From NCBI GenBank assembly GCA_036490175.1, contig DASXEJ010000381.1, positions 1 through 64,000 on the forward strand: a DNA stretch of 64,000 nt. Reading direction: 5' to 3'. Shown here piece by piece: positions 1 through 6,535 of the stretch; position 1 is the first letter of the stretch, and every line of letters starts with the position of its first letter. The notes below the pieces were generated by a model, which worked only from the letters and a program-made list of their open reading frames with translations, was not told the DNA's origin and searched no databases. Made by a program: the position numbers and the translations under genes. This DNA comes from Pirellulales bacterium (GTDB taxonomy: Bacteria; Planctomycetota; Planctomycetia; Pirellulales; JACPPG01).

Positions 1-64
1 AAAAATCTGGACTCTGTAAAAATCTCAGTCTCACGTGGCGGGTATGGTTCGGGCCTGGGCGATA

Positions 65-96
65 CCCGGTAGTCGATTGTTCTTACCACTACCGGG
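65..96. repeat. Inverted repeat CCCGGTAGT / ACTACCGGG
   Basis: Perfect 9-bp arms (65-73 and 88-96) are separated by 14 bases. GTCGAT follows both arms (72-77 and 98-103), so there is also a short direct repeat. It could be a recombination site, a protein-binding site or a stem-loop. There is no T-run on either side, so an intrinsic terminator is unlikely. Confidence 0.5.
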
Positions 97-598
97 GGTC
101 GATAGATGTCCTGCACGTGCGATGCCTTCGGGGAGCCTAAGCTCCTCGAATGTCCATTTGCAAGAGTAACGAACGATTATCTGCATCGATTGTCGACGCA
201 ATTACGCTCGGTAAATTCTGTGCTGCCACATGGCGAAGCGGGCGACCATTAATCTGCACATTGGCACGCTACGCTTGCCGGTGCGTACGCTGTGCGTATG
301 GCTAGCGTGTTGGTGTCATTCGTCGTTGCTGTCTTGGCGAACTGTGTCGCTGTGCAACGACGTGACAAGGGCAGGTCGAGGGCAGGGGCATACACCGATA
401 GATCGTGCTGTGGTGGTGCTGTTCTATCGGCTCCGTGCGATTGTTGTTTTATGCGTTCGTGATCTCGCCTATGCACAGGGTACAGCTCTACGGCGTCTAA
501 ACTCGCGGCCCTGATATTTCGACAACTATTGCGACAGGTATTTGCGAGGGTGTTATTGGGGGCGATGGCGTAGGGGCTGATATTGGGGAGATGTAGAA

Positions 599-625
599 CT
601 GGCCAAGGGTGTTAGCCTTGGCCAA
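599..625 (-). terminator. Possible weak terminator hairpin after the small minus-strand genes
   Basis: GGCCAAGG (601-608) and CCTTGGCC (616-623) form a perfect 8-bp stem with a 7-base loop, about 30 bases past the stop of the minus-strand gene ending at 654. On the minus strand it is followed only by AGTTCTAC, not a real T-run. It may be Rho-assisted or just an mRNA 3'-end structure. Confidence 0.35.
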
Positions 626-653
626 GTGTGCTTTGTGGTTGTTGTTGGTGTGG

Positions 654-851
654 TCAGATTCTTGTTCGTTTGATACGTGTTGTGGCCCCACATAGCTTGC
701 AGCGACGTACCTCTACGCGGTAGTGGGCGATGGCTGCTGTACTGATGATTGTTCCATCAGTTGCGGTATGGGTCTCGGTGACTGTGATCTTTCCATAGTC
801 GCCGTATCGTCCTGGGACGTGCCAGCAAAGTGATCTGAGGTAGGCGAGCAT
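654..851 (-). CDS. Small element protein with one CxxC motif
   Basis: A 65-residue protein of unknown function. The start is well supported: AGGAG lies nine bases upstream of the ATG. It ends with a Cys-Lys-Leu-Cys motif and a basic tail, which could be half of a zinc ribbon or a metal site formed by dimerisation. It overlaps the 3' part of the upstream winged-helix frame (713-1141) in another frame, so either the two overlap for real or the upstream frame only reads on for lack of a stop. All neighbours are co-directional and it is probably the last gene of the run. No homologue recognised. Confidence 0.55.
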   Translation of the reverse strand: MLAYLRSLCWHVPGRYGDYGKITVTETHTATDGTIISTAAIAHYRVEVRRCKLCGATTRIKRTRI

Positions 852-1141
852 GGTCTAGCTCTCCTGGGCTGTCGTGGTTGTTTGCGGATGACTTGCCATT
901 TATGGCGTGCGACTTGCTTGATTCGTTTCTTACGGCGAAGGATTCCCAAATGATTTGTAATCAGTTTGCTCGTGAATTTCGTGATCTTCGCAATCTCGGG
1001 ATTGCTTATCGGTTCGGTGGCGTTTAGCAGGAGTTCGTTGATGCGGTACGACTTGGTATTTACCAATGCTCCGAATTCGTCGCGTATGTCGTGCCGTGAT
1101 GGTCTTCCGCTCATCTTGATGCGGTGTTTGCGTTTTCCCAC
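713..1141 (-). CDS. Winged-helix DNA-binding protein of the mobile element
   Basis: Start is a GTG with AGGAG eight bases upstream; that SD overlaps the stop codon of the preceding gene (ends 1152), so the two are translationally coupled. Residues about 30-85 read as a winged helix: a helix with LLLNA, then NPEIAKIT, a recognition helix TSKLITNHLGILRR and a basic wing. The final 45 or so residues are low-complexity and overlap the well-supported 65-residue gene in another frame, so the functional protein may be essentially the first 95 residues. Likely a transcriptional regulator or replication accessory factor; the partner is unknown. Confidence 0.6.
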   Translation of the reverse strand: MGKRKHRIKMSGRPSRHDIRDEFGALVNTKSYRINELLLNATEPISNPEIAKITKFTSKLITNHLGILRRKKRIKQVARHKWQVIRKQPRQPRRARPCSPTSDHFAGTSQDDTATMERSQSPRPIPQLMEQSSVQQPSPTTA

Positions 1142-1151
1142 GATGATGCTC

Positions 1152-1760
1152 CTACTTGGTGGGTTTCTTGCTGGTCAACTTGTACGATCCATCCTCAGTC
1201 TTTGTGGCGAGTTCTTGTCTCACCATCCACTGCATGTGCCCTTTGCAGCGATCTAGCGGTACGCCAGATGCCTTGGAAATGTGGTCTACCGTTTTTGCTT
1301 TCGCTGACAACGCGGCATTAATTGCTCCTGCGGCTGTGGCAATCCGCACGCCGAAGCGATCACGCTTGGGCTTGGCGGGCTTGGTTGCTTTCTTGGTTGC
1401 TTTCTTAGTGGTGGTCTTGGCTTTTTCCTTCGCGACTGTCTTGGCAAATTTCTTGTCATCGGCTGCCAAACGCTTTTTGATTGCGACTGCTGACATGCTC
1501 TTAATCTCCTTCAATGTTTGTGGGGACGCGGGACTTTTGACTAACGATGGTGGCAATGGGCGATGCTCCATTAGGAATTTGGGATCAGGCTTTTCGACTC
1601 TTGGGTTGAGGCCGGCTAAAAGCAGGCTGCGATAGCGACGGCGGGCGGTAATGATCTCCACGCCGTGATAGAGCTTGCTGCTCCGCCCGCCCGTCTTTTC
1701 GCCTTTGTAGTCCCAGGTCAAAACGATGGCAGGCATTCTTCCGCTGATCGCCGTTGGCAT
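1152..1760 (-). CDS. Lysine-rich element protein, possible nucleic-acid binder
   Basis: A 202-residue protein. The ATG at 1760 has GAGGG seven bases upstream. Residues about 100-130 are a Lys/Ala/Thr-rich linker like histone H1 tails (repeated KKATKKATKPAK), followed by a compact C-terminal domain of about 65 residues that looks like a small helix-turn-helix (AGAINAALSAKAKTVDHISKASG type). An internal Met at residue 90 also has a good SD (AAGGAG, nine bases), so a shorter second product is possible. Its SD is inside a pairing leader (1762-1854). Probably binds DNA of the element; function not recognised. Confidence 0.6.
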   Translation of the reverse strand: MPTAISGRMPAIVLTWDYKGEKTGGRSSKLYHGVEIITARRRYRSLLLAGLNPRVEKPDPKFLMEHRPLPPSLVKSPASPQTLKEIKSMSAVAIKKRLAADDKKFAKTVAKEKAKTTTKKATKKATKPAKPKRDRFGVRIATAAGAINAALSAKAKTVDHISKASGVPLDRCKGHMQWMVRQELATKTEDGSYKLTSKKPTK

Positions 1761-1761
1761 C

Positions 1762-1854
1762 TTAAGCCCTCTGTTGGTAAGGGGTTACGCTCCAAGCATA
1801 ACCCCCTCTACAGAGGGGTGCAATGGGCCTTTTGCGGGCCTGCGGCGATAGCAT
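1762..1854 (-). promoter_or_regulatory. Leader ORF and SD-pairing stem-loops before the lysine-rich gene
   Basis: On the minus strand CCCTCTGT (1817-1810) can pair with the adjacent AGAGGGG (1818-1812) or with ACAGAGGG (1774-1767), which holds the SD of the gene at 1760. Between them GGGGTTA and TAACCCC form another hairpin. A 30-codon ORF from ATG 1854 runs through all of this and stops TAA, one base before the gene's ATG. This is the layout of a translational switch in which leader translation decides whether the SD is free. The leader ORF lacks a well-spaced SD, so its translation is inferred. Confidence 0.45.
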
Positions 1855-1882
1855 GGCCCTAGGGGGCATTTTCGAGTGCCGA

Positions 1883-1919
1883 GGGGCTTACGGGGGCAGC
1901 CAGGGGGCTTAAACGGGGG
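1883..1919 (+). other. G-quadruplex motif
   Basis: Four G-tracts of 4, 5, 5 and 5 bases on the plus strand (1883-1886, 1892-1896, 1903-1907, 1915-1919), with loops of 5, 6 and 7 bases, meet the strict G4-loop1-7 rule. A fifth G5 tract lies at 1862-1866. GGGGCTTA recurs at 1883, 1904 and 1916, so the block is also a set of degenerate direct repeats. It lies between two co-directional minus-strand genes, so the C-rich strand is the transcribed RNA sense and the G-quadruplex could form in DNA only. Candidate origin, barrier or protein-binding site. Confidence 0.6.
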
Positions 1920-1972
1920 CTTAGTGGGCCACGAATGGGCCTACTGACGTGATGCAACGGCGTAGTGATCGG

Positions 1973-2614
1973 CTATAGCAGTTTTTTGCCTTTGATATTC
2001 GATGGCAGTATGACGATTTCTTTCTCGTTTCTACCGTTGAAGTACGCGATCACATCTTTCTTCTGACACGTGCCAGTTCTTACGACGGGTTTGTTCGTGC
2101 CGAAGCATAATCGTTTGGCAAACCATTTCGCCTTAGCCTTGTCCACAGTCCATGAAAGTCCGTTGTGTTCGCCACCACGATAGATGGTGAGGACGTCGGG
2201 CAATTTCTCGAATGCCTTCCGGTCGTCCTTTTCCATGATGTGATGCCGCATGGATCTCGTCGCCGAGAGAAACGATTTCCATAACTTCATTTCTTGCCAA
2301 AGGAATTCGGAATCAATCCAAATCTTGCCTAGTAATCGCCAGAAATCTTCGTCTGGTGCGTCTTCCATCGGTAGGTCGAGGAATGCCCTAAGCCGATCGG
2401 TCCTAGGGTGCATAAATACGTATGCTTCCCAATTTCCATCGGCGATGGCCTTATCTAGCGTTGATGTCATCGACTCCATTTTGTTCTGGACTAACGCATT
2501 GAATTGTGCGGCAAGGACTTCGATGTCTGCCGACCACACCTTCGGTTTGTCGTTTTTGCTCTTCTTTTTGGCAACCTTCTTCGACGATTTCCGCGTAGTC
2601 TTGCCCTTGGCCAT
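1973..2614 (-). CDS. Possible ADP-ribosyltransferase-fold protein of the element
   Basis: 213 residues from the ATG at 2614 (GGGGGTGAG upstream; an in-frame GTG at 2668 has no SD). A Lys-rich N-terminus (about residues 3-24) precedes a helical middle. The C-terminal 75 residues have the order expected of an R-S-E class ADP-ribosyltransferase: TIYRGG with Arg, GLSWT with Ser, then NEKEIVI with a Glu-x-Glu. The phrase 'YRG ... GLSWT ... A-WFA' recurs in phage and plasmid proteins as I know them. If active it would transfer ADP-ribose from NAD to a host or phage target; no immunity gene is apparent. Activity and even the fold remain inference. Confidence 0.5.
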   Translation of the reverse strand: MAKGKTTRKSSKKVAKKKSKNDKPKVWSADIEVLAAQFNALVQNKMESMTSTLDKAIADGNWEAYVFMHPRTDRLRAFLDLPMEDAPDEDFWRLLGKIWIDSEFLWQEMKLWKSFLSATRSMRHHIMEKDDRKAFEKLPDVLTIYRGGEHNGLSWTVDKAKAKWFAKRLCFGTNKPVVRTGTCQKKDVIAYFNGRNEKEIVILPSNIKGKKLL

Positions 2615-2922
2615 GCTCACCCCCGGTGCGGTCAGATTCGTGGTGGATAAAAACCCATTTTGCTCCACGAATATAATCTAGGGCTGGCCTATCCTCCCAC
2701 TACCAAGTGGAATTGGTGTAATGCTCATTCGTTGGGCTTGCTTTTTCGCAGTCGCGGGAGCGATTTATAGTGCTCTTTTCTTCGTAATTTCTAGTGCTTT
2801 CAAACACCACACCACCAATACCACCCCTATTACGACCTTTGCGTCTTCAAGAAACCCCTATTTTTCTAGGGTATTTCCATGTCGTGGGGTGTCACAAAAC
2901 GTAGTGTAAAAACCCCAGTTCA
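2615..2922. other. Intergenic stretch in the element, with a weak hairpin
   Basis: About 300 AT-richer bases without a supported gene. CCCTA (2856-2860) and TAGGG (2867-2871) form a short stem about 50 bases past the stop of the minus-strand gene ending at 2923; it may help end that transcript. CCACT/AGTGG near 2699-2712 is another small palindrome. The minus strand also shows a TATATT that could serve as a -10 for the downstream gene, but no matching -35 is evident. Confidence 0.35.
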
Positions 2923-3117
2923 TCAGTGCCTAGAATGGTTGATAAAGAGCTGGTGCTGTGCGAACCGTTCCCATACCTCTTCCACGTCACGTAGCACGCA
3001 TTCAACCTCGACCTTGGCTGTCCAGTCGCCAGTTGATGCCATCAGTTTACGCATCGAATTGCGGGCCTCGTGCAGATGACGCATCACGCTGTTATGCAAC
3101 TGCTGTTGTTGGGTCAC
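2923..3117 (-). CDS. Small helical protein overlapping the polymerase-like gene
   Basis: 64 residues from a GTG at 3117, preceded by GGAGAG with a six-base spacer; this fits better than the in-frame ATG at 3153. The start lies inside the 3' end of the polymerase-like gene (stop at 3092), an overlap of 26 bases that implies translational coupling and a linked role. The sequence (Gln-rich start, then EARNSMRKL and EVECVLRDVEEVWERF) looks all-helical, possibly coiled-coil. No homologue recognised; an accessory or processivity factor of the polymerase would be a reasonable guess, nothing more. Confidence 0.55.
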   Translation of the reverse strand: MTQQQQLHNSVMRHLHEARNSMRKLMASTGDWTAKVEVECVLRDVEEVWERFAQHQLFINHSRH

Positions 3118-4366
3118 GATAGCTCTCCAAACTGAGGTTAGGCCGAACTCCATAGCGGTTGAATTCGGCCAGGATCATTCGTCGGACCAGCCCTACATCT
3201 GCACGCTTCATCAGGAATGAATCATGCACGGTATACAGAGCTAGTTTGGGCCGTTTGGCCCTGATCTTGTTGCAAATCCCTCTGATAAAAATGGTGGCTT
3301 CGTAGTTTTGCAATATCCACGCCGATCGGCGGTAGTCGGTTCGCTTTAACTCCTCAAGCATGGCAGCCACTGAGGGATAGCGATCCTCAAACCGGTTACG
3401 CAATTTCGACCGCCATGACGGTTTGCCGAAAAATACCTCCGCGTAAAACCGAGTCTTAAACCGGTTGCGATCCTCGCCCCTCTCCATCAGGCTTTCGTAA
3501 AACCGCCCTCGCTCGCATAGCTCGATATACTCCTCCACGTCAGGGTGTCGATCTGCCTTGGTCGCGGGTTGTTGGTCCGCATACCGATAAGGATCTCTGC
3601 CATCCTCGAACGTACGCAGCAACAATCTCTGCTTACTTTTCCCGGCTCGAAAAAACTGCCTTGCACAAATGCCAGCGATAAGCGGCTGGCTGTTGGCTAG
3701 GTCGAGTGATACCAGCGGTTCGCCGTCGACCCGCAAGCAGGGGCGTAGCTGCTTGGCAAGTGACGTTATCGGGGTATGCACACGGCCGAACCGATCGCAC
3801 GTCAACGGTAGCTCTCCATCGACGAACTTCTGGCAGGTTTCCAGCAACTGCAATCGGTACGCCCCTACCGTCAACGTGCTACCCTCATCAGGCACCATCG
3901 TGGCTACGATCGACTCTGCCAGCGGCATGTCAAACGTCAGCACCGCTAGCCTTCGCTTAAGCCATTCATGCACCGGCAGCAGCGATACCGTAGCGGTCCC
4001 ATACGCGACCCGAATGGCGTGGTCGACCGATTCATCACGGCACCTCACTCGGCGGGTGTGACGATAGCCTGGGGCCAGTCGAAAGCCATACGACTTGTGG
4101 CCCTGTTGGGCTTGCTTGTCACACTGCACTACTCCACTGTCAATCAGTGCATTGCGGAGTGTCTTGTAGACACTGACGGGAATGACTTTCGTGAGATAGT
4201 CGTACTTGAGCCGTATGTACCCTCGGTTGTCTGCCTGCCAACTAATCCACTTCCAATGCAGCAGATTCAAAAAGTAGTGGGCGTAGTCGCGTTGCGACTT
4301 GGGGAACATTTTTGGGTCGTACATCACTGGGATGTAGAACGATGCCGGTTTATCCGTCCATGCCAT
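3092..4366 (-). CDS. Compact family A DNA polymerase-like protein of a mobile element
   Basis: 424 residues. Three motifs in order match the family A palm and fingers: motif A LDLANSQP (Asp222), an O-helix-like motif B with Arg300, Lys304, Thr305, Tyr308 and Phe312 (the R-x3-K-T-x2-Y-x3-aromatic pattern of T7 DNA polymerase) before a Gly, and motif C VHDS (His381, Asp382). FGRVHT at 193-198 resembles the conserved GR-x-[HS] stretch before motif A. There is no 3'-5' or 5' exonuclease domain, and at 424 residues it is much smaller than PolA. The N-terminal 120 residues may be a DNA-binding or priming part. It probably replicates or repairs the element. The motif A spacing (Asp to Gln five residues, not three) and the Ser in place of the motif C Glu are unusual. 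The structured leader suggests tight translational control, as for plasmid replication proteins. Confidence 0.7.
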   Translation of the reverse strand: MAWTDKPASFYIPVMYDPKMFPKSQRDYAHYFLNLLHWKWISWQADNRGYIRLKYDYLTKVIPVSVYKTLRNALIDSGVVQCDKQAQQGHKSYGFRLAPGYRHTRRVRCRDESVDHAIRVAYGTATVSLLPVHEWLKRRLAVLTFDMPLAESIVATMVPDEGSTLTVGAYRLQLLETCQKFVDGELPLTCDRFGRVHTPITSLAKQLRPCLRVDGEPLVSLDLANSQPLIAGICARQFFRAGKSKQRLLLRTFEDGRDPYRYADQQPATKADRHPDVEEYIELCERGRFYESLMERGEDRNRFKTRFYAEVFFGKPSWRSKLRNRFEDRYPSVAAMLEELKRTDYRRSAWILQNYEATIFIRGICNKIRAKRPKLALYTVHDSFLMKRADVGLVRRMILAEFNRYGVRPNLSLESYRDPTTAVA

Positions 4367-4372
4367 GTCGAA

Positions 4373-4440
4373 ATTCTTCCTTTCAAATGGGTGACCCGAT
4401 CGGCTGTCATGCGAAAGGAAGAATCACAACAGCCGATCGG
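4373..4440 (-). promoter_or_regulatory. Interleaved inverted repeats (possible pseudoknot) sequestering the polymerase SD
   Basis: Two perfect 12-bp inverted repeats are interleaved. In minus-strand order: S1 arm CCGATCGGCTGT (4440-4429), 4 bases, S2 arm ATTCTTCCTTTC (4424-4413), 5 bases, S1 arm ACAGCCGATCGG (4407-4396), 11 bases, S2 arm GAAAGGAAGAAT (4384-4373). The last arm contains AAGGAAG, the SD of the polymerase-like gene (ATG nine bases on). The topology is that of an H-type pseudoknot, or of two alternative hairpins with loops of 21 and 28 bases. Either way S2 hides the SD. Full-length formation of both 12-bp stems at once may be sterically hard. Confidence 0.7.
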
Positions 4441-4469
4441 AATCGACGCGGGAGCGACCCGCTACCCAT
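4407..4469 (-). CDS. Putative 20-codon leader peptide before the polymerase-like gene
   Basis: ATG at 4469 reads MGSGSLPRRFRSAVVILPFA and stops at TGA just before the 3' arm of stem S1. Its codons cover the 5' arm of S1 and all of the anti-SD arm of S2. A ribosome finishing here would melt S1 and cover the anti-SD, freeing the polymerase SD. This is reminiscent of the leader peptides that govern replication genes of IncI-type plasmids, though there the pseudoknot activates. The only SD candidate, GAGGA, is 16 bases upstream, which is too far to be strong, so translation of this ORF is a hypothesis from layout. Confidence 0.4.
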   Translation of the reverse strand: MGSGSLPRRFRSAVVILPFA

Positions 4470-4727
4470 TAGTATTTTCTGCGTATCCTCGAATTGACTT
4501 CTGGTTGCCCTCAATTGGTTGCTATGTCGTTACTCGCACACCCGCTAGGCCAGCCCCTCGGCCCCATCGCGTACGGGGCTCACTGACCGCCGATCGACTG
4601 CCAAGGCCCCTCGGTTCGCCTTTGGGTGCCGAAGGCCCTTAGGGGGTCGCTGGCGGGCTCGGTTCGACCCGTCGCCCCCTGTTTAGCCCGATAGTTGTGC
4701 CGTTTACGACGAAAAGCACGGTATCAA
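4441..4727. other. Element right end, GC-rich hairpins, junction with broken chromosomal gene
   Basis: No gene. GCGGG/CCCGC (about 4449-4463) forms a small hairpin just upstream of the pseudoknot region. AGCCCC/GGGGCT and GGGGGTCG/CGACCC pairs lie between 4550 and 4680. AGGCCCTTAGGGGG (4633-4646) echoes GGCCCTAGGGGG at 1855-1866 in the same element. Similarity to the squalene-cyclase-like family begins only at the Trp codon at 4728, so the insertion junction must lie within a few bases of about 4720. Confidence 0.45.
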
Positions 4728-5405
4728 TGGGTTTCATCGTCGAACGATGCCGCCACGACGGGCAAGCTGCACCCGATCACACGCCAGGCGCTCGACAAGA
4801 TGTGGACGCTACAGCGCGAAGACGGCGGATGGACCTGGCTGAAGTGCGATTGGCCGCCGATGGAATCCGATGATCATTTCGGCGTTGCGTTTGCAGCCAT
4901 TGGGGCGGGCGTCGCGCCGGACGGATACGCCGACACGCCGGCGGCCAAGGCCGGCTTGGACAAGATCCGCACCTACCTGGCGAACAACCCTCCGCCGACC
5001 TTGCATCATAAGGCGATGGTCATGTGGGCCTCGACGTACGTGCCGAACCTGATGACCGATGCCGACCGGCAGGCGTGCATCGATACACTGCGCGGCCTGC
5101 AGCACGACGACGGCGGTTGGGGGCTGGCCACGCTGGGCAACTGGCAGCGCGGCGACGGCACACCGCAGGACACCGCGGCCAGCGATGGCTACGGCACCGG
5201 CTTCGTCATCTATGTGTTACGTCGCGCAGGAATTGCGGCCGACGACGCGCAAATCCAGCGTGGCATTACCTGGCTCAAGACCCATCAGCGGGAAAGTGGC
5301 CGCTGGTTCTCGCGGTCGTTGCACGCGGACAGCAAACACTATATTTCGCACGCGGGCACGGCCTTCGCGCTATTGGCGCTGGCCTCTTGCGATGCGGCGA
5401 AGTAG
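4728..5405 (+). pseudogene. 3' part of a squalene-hopene-cyclase-like repeat protein, start lost
   Basis: About 226 codons of a prenyltransferase/squalene-oxidase repeat protein (alpha-alpha barrel). QW-type repeats are visible: LQREDGGW and LQHDDGGW, then a GRWFSRS repeat near the end. Planctomycete relatives as I recall them are secreted proteins of roughly 350-400 residues; the N-terminal signal and first repeats are missing here. The open frame extends left only to a TTG at 4695 next to a stop, has no SD, and encodes unrelated residues before WVSSSND. I infer that the mobile element on the left inserted into this gene. The C-terminus is intact, with no frameshift, suggesting a recent event. 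Confidence 0.75.
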
Positions 5406-5467
5406 GGACACGACGATGGAATGGTGCGATCGACAGTGGCAGCGCGCCAGTCGTTGCGGGGCTACTG

Positions 5468-6535
5468 CTACTTCTTCCACGGAATGTGATAGCCGTCGAC
5501 GTTGAGCCTAATGCGGTACAGCTTCTTGTCGACGGTTACATACAGCGTGCTTGCCTCGGCGCCGATCCCGAATTCGCAATTGCTCGGCAAGCCTTCGGTC
5601 GCCTCGACGTCGGCCGCTACCGTGGCCGTGGGAATAAAGGCCAGTTCCTTGCCTGCGGGATCGAGCACTAGTATTCCCGGCCGCTTGGCGCTGCGTGCCG
5701 CCAGGTAAAGATTCCCTTGCACGTCGATGGTCATGCCGTCGCAGCCATCTTCCTTGCCGAAATCAATCAAGGTGTGGCGTGGCCCACTGACCGTGCCTGC
5801 TGCAGACAAGCCGAAGGCGTAGACCTTCATGGCACCTTTCGCCGGTTTGACGCCGGCCTGGATGCGATCGCTGCCGTTGTTGGTATCGGCAACGTACAGT
5901 GTCTTCTGGTCCGGGCTGATGGCGATGCCGTTGGGCTTTTCGACATCGTGCGTCACTTCATTCACCTTGCCGTCGGCGTCGATCCGATAGACGGCCCGCT
6001 GCTCGAGCTCGCGCGGTTCAGTTCCCAAGTAACGCGGATCGGTGAAATAGATGCGTCCTTGCTCGTCCAGACATAGATCGTTGGGAGCGTTGAAGTGCTT
6101 TCCCTGATAACGGTCGGCGAGCGTCGCGCGCTCGCCCGTCTTTACGTTCCAGCGAGACACGCGGCGGCCCCCCTGGTCTGAACCCTCGCAGGCGATGAGT
6201 TGGCCCTGGGCGTCGAATGCCAGTCCGTTTGCTTTGCCGCTGTCGGCCGTGAAGGTTGACGTTTTTTGCGTGGCCGGATCGAAGCGGACGATTAATCCAT
6301 GGTCTGCCCCTTCCGGGATATCGGTGAAGTAAATGCTGCCGTCGGGGGCAACCGCCGGACCCTCGGTCAATCCGCCGGCGATTGGCGCGGTGCGCGTGTA
6401 GAGCAGCTCGAGCCGTGCATTGGCAGGCACAATATCATTGTCGGCTGCCAGAACCGCGCGCGGTGCCAGCGAAACCACGAGCAGCAGAGCCGCCACTACC
6501 GGTCGCCGGCATTTTTCGTTGATCTTGATGCGCAT
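5468..6535 (-). CDS. Secreted SMP-30/gluconolactonase-family protein
   Basis: 355 residues with a signal peptide (basic start, hydrophobic run to residue about 30, cleavage after VLAA). The rest is a six-bladed propeller of the SMP-30/LRE family: TEGPAVAPDG near the start gives the metal-binding Glu, NAPNDLCLDEQG the Asn pair, KPNGIAISPD a third blade and DGMTIDVQGN the catalytic Asp. Such enzymes hydrolyse sugar lactones with a divalent metal. The substrate cannot be read from sequence. It is convergent with the truncated cyclase-like gene and has about 400 bases of upstream sequence holding a dispersed repeat. Confidence 0.85.
   Translation of the reverse strand: MRIKINEKCRRPVVAALLLVVSLAPRAVLAADNDIVPANARLELLYTRTAPIAGGLTEGPAVAPDGSIYFTDIPEGADHGLIVRFDPATQKTSTFTADSGKANGLAFDAQGQLIACEGSDQGGRRVSRWNVKTGERATLADRYQGKHFNAPNDLCLDEQGRIYFTDPRYLGTEPRELEQRAVYRIDADGKVNEVTHDVEKPNGIAISPDQKTLYVADTNNGSDRIQAGVKPAKGAMKVYAFGLSAAGTVSGPRHTLIDFGKEDGCDGMTIDVQGNLYLAARSAKRPGILVLDPAGKELAFIPTATVAADVEATEGLPSNCEFGIGAEASTLYVTVDKKLYRIRLNVDGYHIPWKK

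What the first reader, a model, noticed from the sequence alone, without database searches (positions are those of the whole stretch)
4373..4469. Possible pseudoknot switch with leader peptide controlling the polymerase-like gene
Two perfect 12-bp inverted repeats are interleaved (4440-4429/4407-4396 and 4424-4413/4384-4373). The last arm holds the gene's Shine-Dalgarno. A 20-codon ORF (4469-4407) runs through the first arm of each stem and stops exactly at the S1 3' arm, so a terminating ribosome would cover the anti-SD and free the SD. Plasmid replication genes of IncI and related types use leader translation plus RNA pseudoknots, although there the pseudoknot activates, so this would be a variant with the opposite sign.
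Basis: partly seen in the sequence, partly recalled or inferred. Interest (0 to 1): 0.85.

Follow-up and report, generated by a model that had tools for sequence, protein, structure and literature searches.

The report
Hidden ribosome-binding site before prophage polymerase
In a virus genome lying dormant in a planctomycete bacterium, the start signal of the virus's DNA-copying gene sits in two interlocking hairpin stems that look built to hide or expose it, a known style of RNA control, seen here in one genome only and not shared by its relatives.

Summary
Two perfect 12-bp inverted repeats interleave on the minus strand, and the last arm holds a strong Shine-Dalgarno (SD) of the gene at 4366. 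They are two of only three perfect inverted repeats of 12 bp or more (loop up to 60) in the 64-kb window; simulations never gave such an interleaved pair. The setting is not a plasmid: window 1-4742 is the right end of a prophage inserted in a cyclase gene. The left end, with a large serine integrase and terminase, is on another contig, and removing the prophage restores the cyclase frame. The gene is a minimal superfamily-A polymerase, TV-Pol-like, found in about 6-9% of sampled genomes of its order and class. Best reading: a cis-acting translational control element, with SD-exposed and SD-buried folds of nearly equal computed energy, resembling the rpsO pseudoknot operator. The leader-peptide part is not supported: that ORF lacks an SD, and its geometry arises in about 5% of shuffles. 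No relative, including those at 46-47% identity, shares the stems, so there is no covariation evidence. The trigger and even the default state are unknown. Probably functional, but a single-genome case of a known kind of element.

The parts
4396..4440 (-). Stem S1: perfect 12 bp, arms 4440-4429 and 4407-4396, 21-nt loop that contains the anti-SD arm of S2
   Evidence: duplex energy -22.5 kcal/mol
4373..4424 (-). Stem S2: perfect 12 bp, arms 4424-4413 (anti-SD, in the S1 loop) and 4384-4373 (contains the SD)
   Evidence: duplex energy -14.8 kcal/mol; 2 of 20,000 shuffles reach 12 bp
4376..4383 (-). Shine-Dalgarno AAAGGAAG of the polymerase gene, 9 nt before its ATG
   Evidence: sequence; same SD style in other phage genes
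4386..4470 (-). S0: 7-bp pairing of 4470-4464 with 4392-4386 that encloses S1 and pairs the start codon of the leader ORF; with a small hairpin 4462-4448
   Evidence: MFE fold, z = -4.3; energies
4407..4469 (-). 20-codon leader ORF (MGSGSLPRRFRSAVVILPFA*); no SD at proper spacing; considered a probable chance ORF
3092..4366 (-). Minimal superfamily-A (TV-Pol-like) polymerase gene, 424 aa, motifs D222, R300xxxK304, D382
   Evidence: alignments A1-A3; fold matches; PMC2579912
4743..4750 (+). attR core AACGATGC: junction between prophage (1-4742) and the cyclase gene remnant (4743-5405)
4590..4603 (+). Third copy of the S1-arm motif (CCGATCGACTGCCA, 12/14 to 4396-4409), relevant to the DNA-site rival

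Best explanation
A cis-acting RNA element that controls translation of the prophage's own polymerase. The SD of the polymerase gene is in one strand of a 12-bp stem (S2); the other strand lies in the loop of a strong 12-bp hairpin (S1). The leader can hold the SD free (S1 with S0) or buried (S2 as an extended hairpin, or S1 and S2 together as an H-type pseudoknot). The computed nested folds differ by about 2 kcal/mol, so a factor that favours one of them would set the polymerase level. Shown: the anatomy, its rarity, the gene's identity and the prophage setting. Computed only: the folds and their energies. Inferred: that the RNA is made and folds so, that SD access limits translation, and that a trans factor acts. 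The most economical factor is the polymerase itself binding its leader (as T4 gp43 does) or simple throttling that needs melting by the ribosome; ribosomes on a leader ORF are less likely.
For: Exact interleaved stems with the SD in the last arm; statistical excess; the leader folds better than shuffles, z -4.3, and is one of the two most structured of 46 leaders in the window. S1-fold -47.4 kcal/mol with the SD core mostly unpaired, S2-forced fold -45.6 with the SD paired; removing the S1 5' arm (5' end at 4428) gives complete SD pairing, removing the anti-SD (5' end at 4412) gives a free SD core. Phage genes mostly carry clear SDs, so hiding one should matter. Polymerase-fold product, with an RNA operator precedent in T4 gp43 (PMC3014915) and a two-fold pseudoknot operator precedent in rpsO (PMC8470358).
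Against: No covariation or conservation: none of 44 other family leaders, nor the relatives at 46-47% and 39-40% identity, has the paired stems. No Rfam family. The nested optimum leaves the SD mostly free, and the pseudoknot state is only estimated, roughly -36 to -38 kcal/mol (hairpin+S1 -31.2 plus S2 -14.8 plus an assumed penalty of 8-10), less stable than either nested fold. L1 of 4 nt across a 12-bp S2 is tight, so a few A-U pairs would have to open. Transcription start unknown; no consensus promoter found.
Confidence: 0.55

Rival explanations
1. One reading: ribosomes translating the 20-codon leader ORF stop at 4407, cover the anti-SD arm and free the SD, coupling polymerase translation to leader translation.
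For: The stop codon position would place a ribosome over about 4424-4394; computed removal of the anti-SD arm frees the SD. The relative L076 (47% identity) has its own short upstream ORF and an SD inside a local palindrome ACCTCTAAGAGGT, a loose functional parallel.
Against: No SD for the leader ORF although most phage genes have one; 5.5% of shuffles give an ORF with this geometry; its start codon is itself paired in S0. No homologous leader peptide in relatives.
Confidence: 0.12
2. DNA-level sites: the S1 arms are recognition sites (operator or iterons) of a DNA-binding protein, near the attachment site and the replication gene, and the RNA stem is a by-product of their inverted arrangement.
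For: The S1 arms carry the palindrome CCGATCGG, and CGATCGNCTG occurs three times in 204 bp (4397, 4430, 4591) of seven in 64 kb.
Against: Does not explain S2, whose 12-bp match is to the SD; the third copy is only 12/14; no comparable repeats upstream of relatives' genes; CGATCG is common in this genome.
Confidence: 0.15
3. A structure acting on the upstream gene: in the circular phage the integrase reads across attP into this region, so the stems could act on integrase mRNA stability from downstream, as lambda sib does.
For: Integrase and polymerase are co-oriented across attP in the circular form, and the integrase frame runs on past the junction to about window 4639.
Against: The stems lie about 200 nt beyond that stop and are placed exactly on the SD of the next gene; RNase III cleavage cannot be tested here.
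Confidence: 0.04
4. Chance: a coincidental pair of inverted repeats with no function.
For: Not conserved in relatives; the components are a frequent palindrome and a purine tract.
Against: Joint probability very low.
Confidence: 0.14

Closest known systems
rpsO (ribosomal protein S15) pseudoknot translational operator, E. coli and mycobacteria (PMC8470358)
   Same: Leader with two topologies, two hairpins or a pseudoknot, in which hairpin-loop bases pair near the ribosome-binding site of the gene.
   Different: Phage polymerase gene, much longer stems (12+12 bp), no known ligand protein, no conservation shown.
T4/RB69 gene 43 (DNA polymerase) and gene 32 mRNA autoregulatory sites (PMC3014915)
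   Same: Phage replication gene with a leader structure that governs ribosome access; gene 32 uses a pseudoknot.
   Different: The gene 43 operator is a short hairpin with no evidence for a pseudoknot; the gene 32 pseudoknot lies 67 nt upstream of the start, away from the ribosome-binding site. Autoregulation untested here.
IncI/IncB/IncL/M plasmid rep leaders (ColIb-P9 repY/repZ; Asano and Mizobuchi 1998, cited in PMC10286972)
   Same: Leader ORF plus pseudoknot before a replication gene.
   Different: Prophage, not plasmid; leader ORF lacks an SD; the pseudoknot here would bury the SD rather than activate; no antisense RNA found.
TV-Pol family of minimal superfamily-A polymerases in mobile elements (Iyer et al. 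2008, PMC2579912)
   Same: Small stand-alone polymerase, two palm aspartates, RxxxK finger motif, conserved arginine, linked to resolvase/integrase genes, present in planctomycetes.
   Different: No D5 helicase neighbour looked for or seen in the part of the prophage read; leader regulation is not treated in the passages I read.

Membership tests
SD-sequestering pseudoknot operator (rpsO-like architecture) | A hairpin loop pairs with a downstream strand that holds or overlaps the SD | tested here: met
   S1 loop 4424-4413 perfectly complementary to 4384-4373, which holds the SD
SD-sequestering pseudoknot operator (rpsO-like architecture) | Two competing conformations of similar stability, one with SD exposed | tested here: met
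   In silico only: -47.4 versus -45.6 kcal/mol
SD-sequestering pseudoknot operator (rpsO-like architecture) | Structure conserved with covariation in homologous leaders | tested here: not met
   Absent from 44 other family leaders and from the 46-47% identical relatives; no closer relatives were found to test
SD-sequestering pseudoknot operator (rpsO-like architecture) | A protein or ligand that stabilises one conformation | not testable with these tools
   needs binding or reporter assays
IncI-type leader-peptide and pseudoknot replication control | Replication initiator gene of a plasmid | tested here: not met
   Prophage with integrase, terminase and att sites
IncI-type leader-peptide and pseudoknot replication control | Translated leader peptide with its own ribosome-binding site | tested here: not met
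   No SD at 4469; geometry 5.5% by chance; translation itself not testable
IncI-type leader-peptide and pseudoknot replication control | Antisense RNA against the leader hairpin | tested here: inconclusive
   No consensus promoter on either strand in 4300-4800
TV-Pol (superfamily A minimal polymerase) | Two palm aspartates, conserved arginine, RxxxK in fingers, no nuclease domain | tested here: met
   D222, D382, R300xxxK304, invariant R195/R208 in alignments; fold matches to Pol I polymerase domains, Foldseek E 5.5e-5 at low TM, and to a phage putative DNA polymerase I, E 5e-17
TV-Pol (superfamily A minimal polymerase) | Direct sequence match to the published TV-Pol alignment | not tested
   Published alignment not held; no Pfam model matched
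Temperate phage with large serine integrase | Integrase, att core, restored target gene, virion genes | tested here: met
   phrog_95 8.6e-51, terminase 5.2e-22, weak head protease; empty site in frame, attP dyad

The most novel reading that the evidence does not exclude
An integration-state switch: in the circular phage the polymerase leader is transcribed from the integrase across attP, and ribosomes arriving from upstream or from the leader ORF keep the SD open; in the prophage the leader is cut off from that traffic and folds so that the SD is buried, keeping the polymerase silent.
Probability: 0.08. Interest if true: 0.75.

Novelty: new member of a known kind. Interest (0 to 1): 0.42.

Why it matters
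If confirmed it would give a translational control element for a TV-Pol-type polymerase in a planctomycete temperate phage, and a further phage case of a pseudoknot at a translation start, which a 2010 review (PMC3014915) called possibly unique among viruses to T4-type gene 32. The test is cheap: a few reporter mutants.

Tried and rejected
Rfam search of 1-6000: nothing. Close relatives by single protein in genome contigs and viral contigs: none; by an alignment of five: four loci at 36-47%, none viral. Leader DNA by blastn in phages, plasmids and 20 relatives: nothing beyond one weak 51-nt hit. Exact S1-loop pattern in viral contigs: none. Aligning the leader to L075 and L076 gives no common structure. 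tRNA as attachment site: none in the window. Intrinsic terminator reading of S1: no T run after the full stem; the one scan hit is a 6-pair partial stem. Iterons upstream of relatives: none. The 24-nt 79% inverted repeat 4366-4389/4408-4431 is S2 with imperfect extensions.

Full report
What was checked. In 120 Markov simulations of the whole window (orders 1 and 4, 60 each) no interleaved pair with both stems of 11 bp or more appeared. The window has only three independent perfect inverted repeats of 12 bp or more with a loop of at most 60 nt, and two of them are this pair. Keeping the SD region fixed and shuffling the 126 nt upstream, 2 of 20,000 shuffles give a perfect complement of 12 or more. 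Among 143 ORF leaders it has the longest SD complement. Two features soften this: the S1 arm is built on the palindrome CCGATCGG, and CGATCG is common here (88 times); S2 is a purine tract.

What the gene is. The 424-aa product has no Pfam or PHROG match. A profile of nine relatives, from planctomycete genomes, a Hymenobacter plasmid and very large phages, finds the family in 26 of 397 genomes of the order. The single protein finds 36 of 398 in the class and 3 of 392 across the phylum, the window's own genome included in each count. Invariant residues include the palm aspartates D222 and D382, R195 and R208, and K304, with R300 invariant in the closer set (RxxxK). An AlphaFold model (mean pLDDT 79) matches Pol I polymerase domains, though at low TM-scores (Foldseek E 5.5e-5, TM 0.37), and a phage 'putative DNA polymerase I' (E 5e-17). 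This agrees with the TV-Pol family of Iyer and colleagues (PMC2579912): minimal superfamily-A polymerases of mobile elements, linked to resolvases and integrases. I could not test the published profile itself.

Where it sits. The ORF at 4695-5405 is the C-terminal part of a cyclase whose open frames are 369-406 aa in the same genus. Its N-terminal part is on another contig of the same genome, C125, next to a large serine integrase (phrog_95, 8.6e-51), a terminase large subunit (5.2e-22) and a weak head-protease match. Both junctions share AACGATGC. Joining the bacterial flanks restores the cyclase in frame (...VATGTVLAFNDAATTGKLHP...), and joining the phage flanks gives an attP with a 19 of 24 dyad. 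So window 1-4742 is the right end of a prophage. In the circular phage, integrase, attP, leader and polymerase follow each other on one strand.

How it may work. The best nested fold (S0, small hairpin, S1; -47.4 kcal/mol) leaves the SD core mostly unpaired. The fold with S2 forced is -45.6, with the SD paired. The leader scores z -4.3 against shuffles. Taking away the S1 5' arm makes S2 form completely; taking away the anti-SD arm frees the SD core. S1 and S2 share no bases, so both could form as a pseudoknot. With an assumed pseudoknot penalty of 8-10 kcal/mol this state is about -36 to -38 (from the energies), so I leave pseudoknot and alternating folds both open. The order of synthesis would let S1 form first, which argues that the SD may be open unless something favours S2. 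Which state is the default cannot be decided from sequence.

The leader peptide. All eight phage genes checked on C125 and four of six on the window have a recognisable SD at normal spacing; the leader ORF has not (GAGG is 17 nt away). An ATG ORF of at least 10 codons that stops at this spot occurs in 5.5% of shuffles. Its start codon is paired in S0.

Relatives. Closest by protein are Pirellulales MAG loci L075/L078 (46%) and L076/L079 (47%), then L073/L080 (40%) and L074/L081 (39%). Only the window has interleaved stems among 45 leaders scanned, and leader alignment shows no common structure. Start codons of several distant members were picked by rule and may be wrong. L076 has a different arrangement: an SD inside the palindrome ACCTCTAAGAGGT and an upstream 37-codon ORF with an SD-like GGAG. 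Family leaders as a group are only slightly more structured than controls (median z -0.58 versus 0.2). This weakens but does not exclude function, since such operators differ even between related phages (gene 32 of RB49 lacks the T4 pseudoknot; PMC3014915).

Comparison. By mode of action the nearest known system is the rpsO operator, two hairpins or a pseudoknot at the initiation region (PMC8470358), with T4 gene 43 and 32 autoregulation as precedent for phage replication genes. Membership in either would need a bound protein, which is untested. IncI-type control fails on setting, leader ribosome-binding site and sign.

Verdict. A real and unusual sequence feature, most likely a translational control element of a prophage polymerase, known in kind, with the leader-peptide story unsupported and no comparative evidence. 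Interest moderate.

Noticed in passing
L093:6038-7885 and window 4639-4742: The integrase gene ends on the attachment core: in the prophage its stop codon comes from the cyclase gene, while in the circular phage the frame would run about 34 codons further, to about window 4639. Integration thus changes the integrase C-terminus.
   Followed up: partly
window 4743-5405 and L093:7863-8276: A squalene-hopene-cyclase-like gene, intact in four congeners, is split by the prophage across two contigs.
   Followed up: yes
window 1760-1885 (-): The leader of the prophage gene 1152-1760 is also strongly structured (z -3.8): a 13-bp hairpin inside an 8-bp stem that pairs its SD region.
   Followed up: partly
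window 1973-2668 (-): Prophage gene of phrog_4776 (unknown function, 7e-53), with distant relatives on Agrobacterium and other plasmids, 20 of 44 of them typed as conjugative.
   Followed up: no
L075 and L076, roughly 140-220 nt before the polymerase gene: Two relatives share a conserved non-coding stretch GAAGGTCTTACCATCCTGCCCTT...ATCATAAT upstream of the gene, of unknown role.
   Followed up: no
LR756511, LR756501, LR756504, LR745206: Distant polymerase relatives (20-30%) in unannotated phage genomes of 595-735 kb.
   Followed up: no
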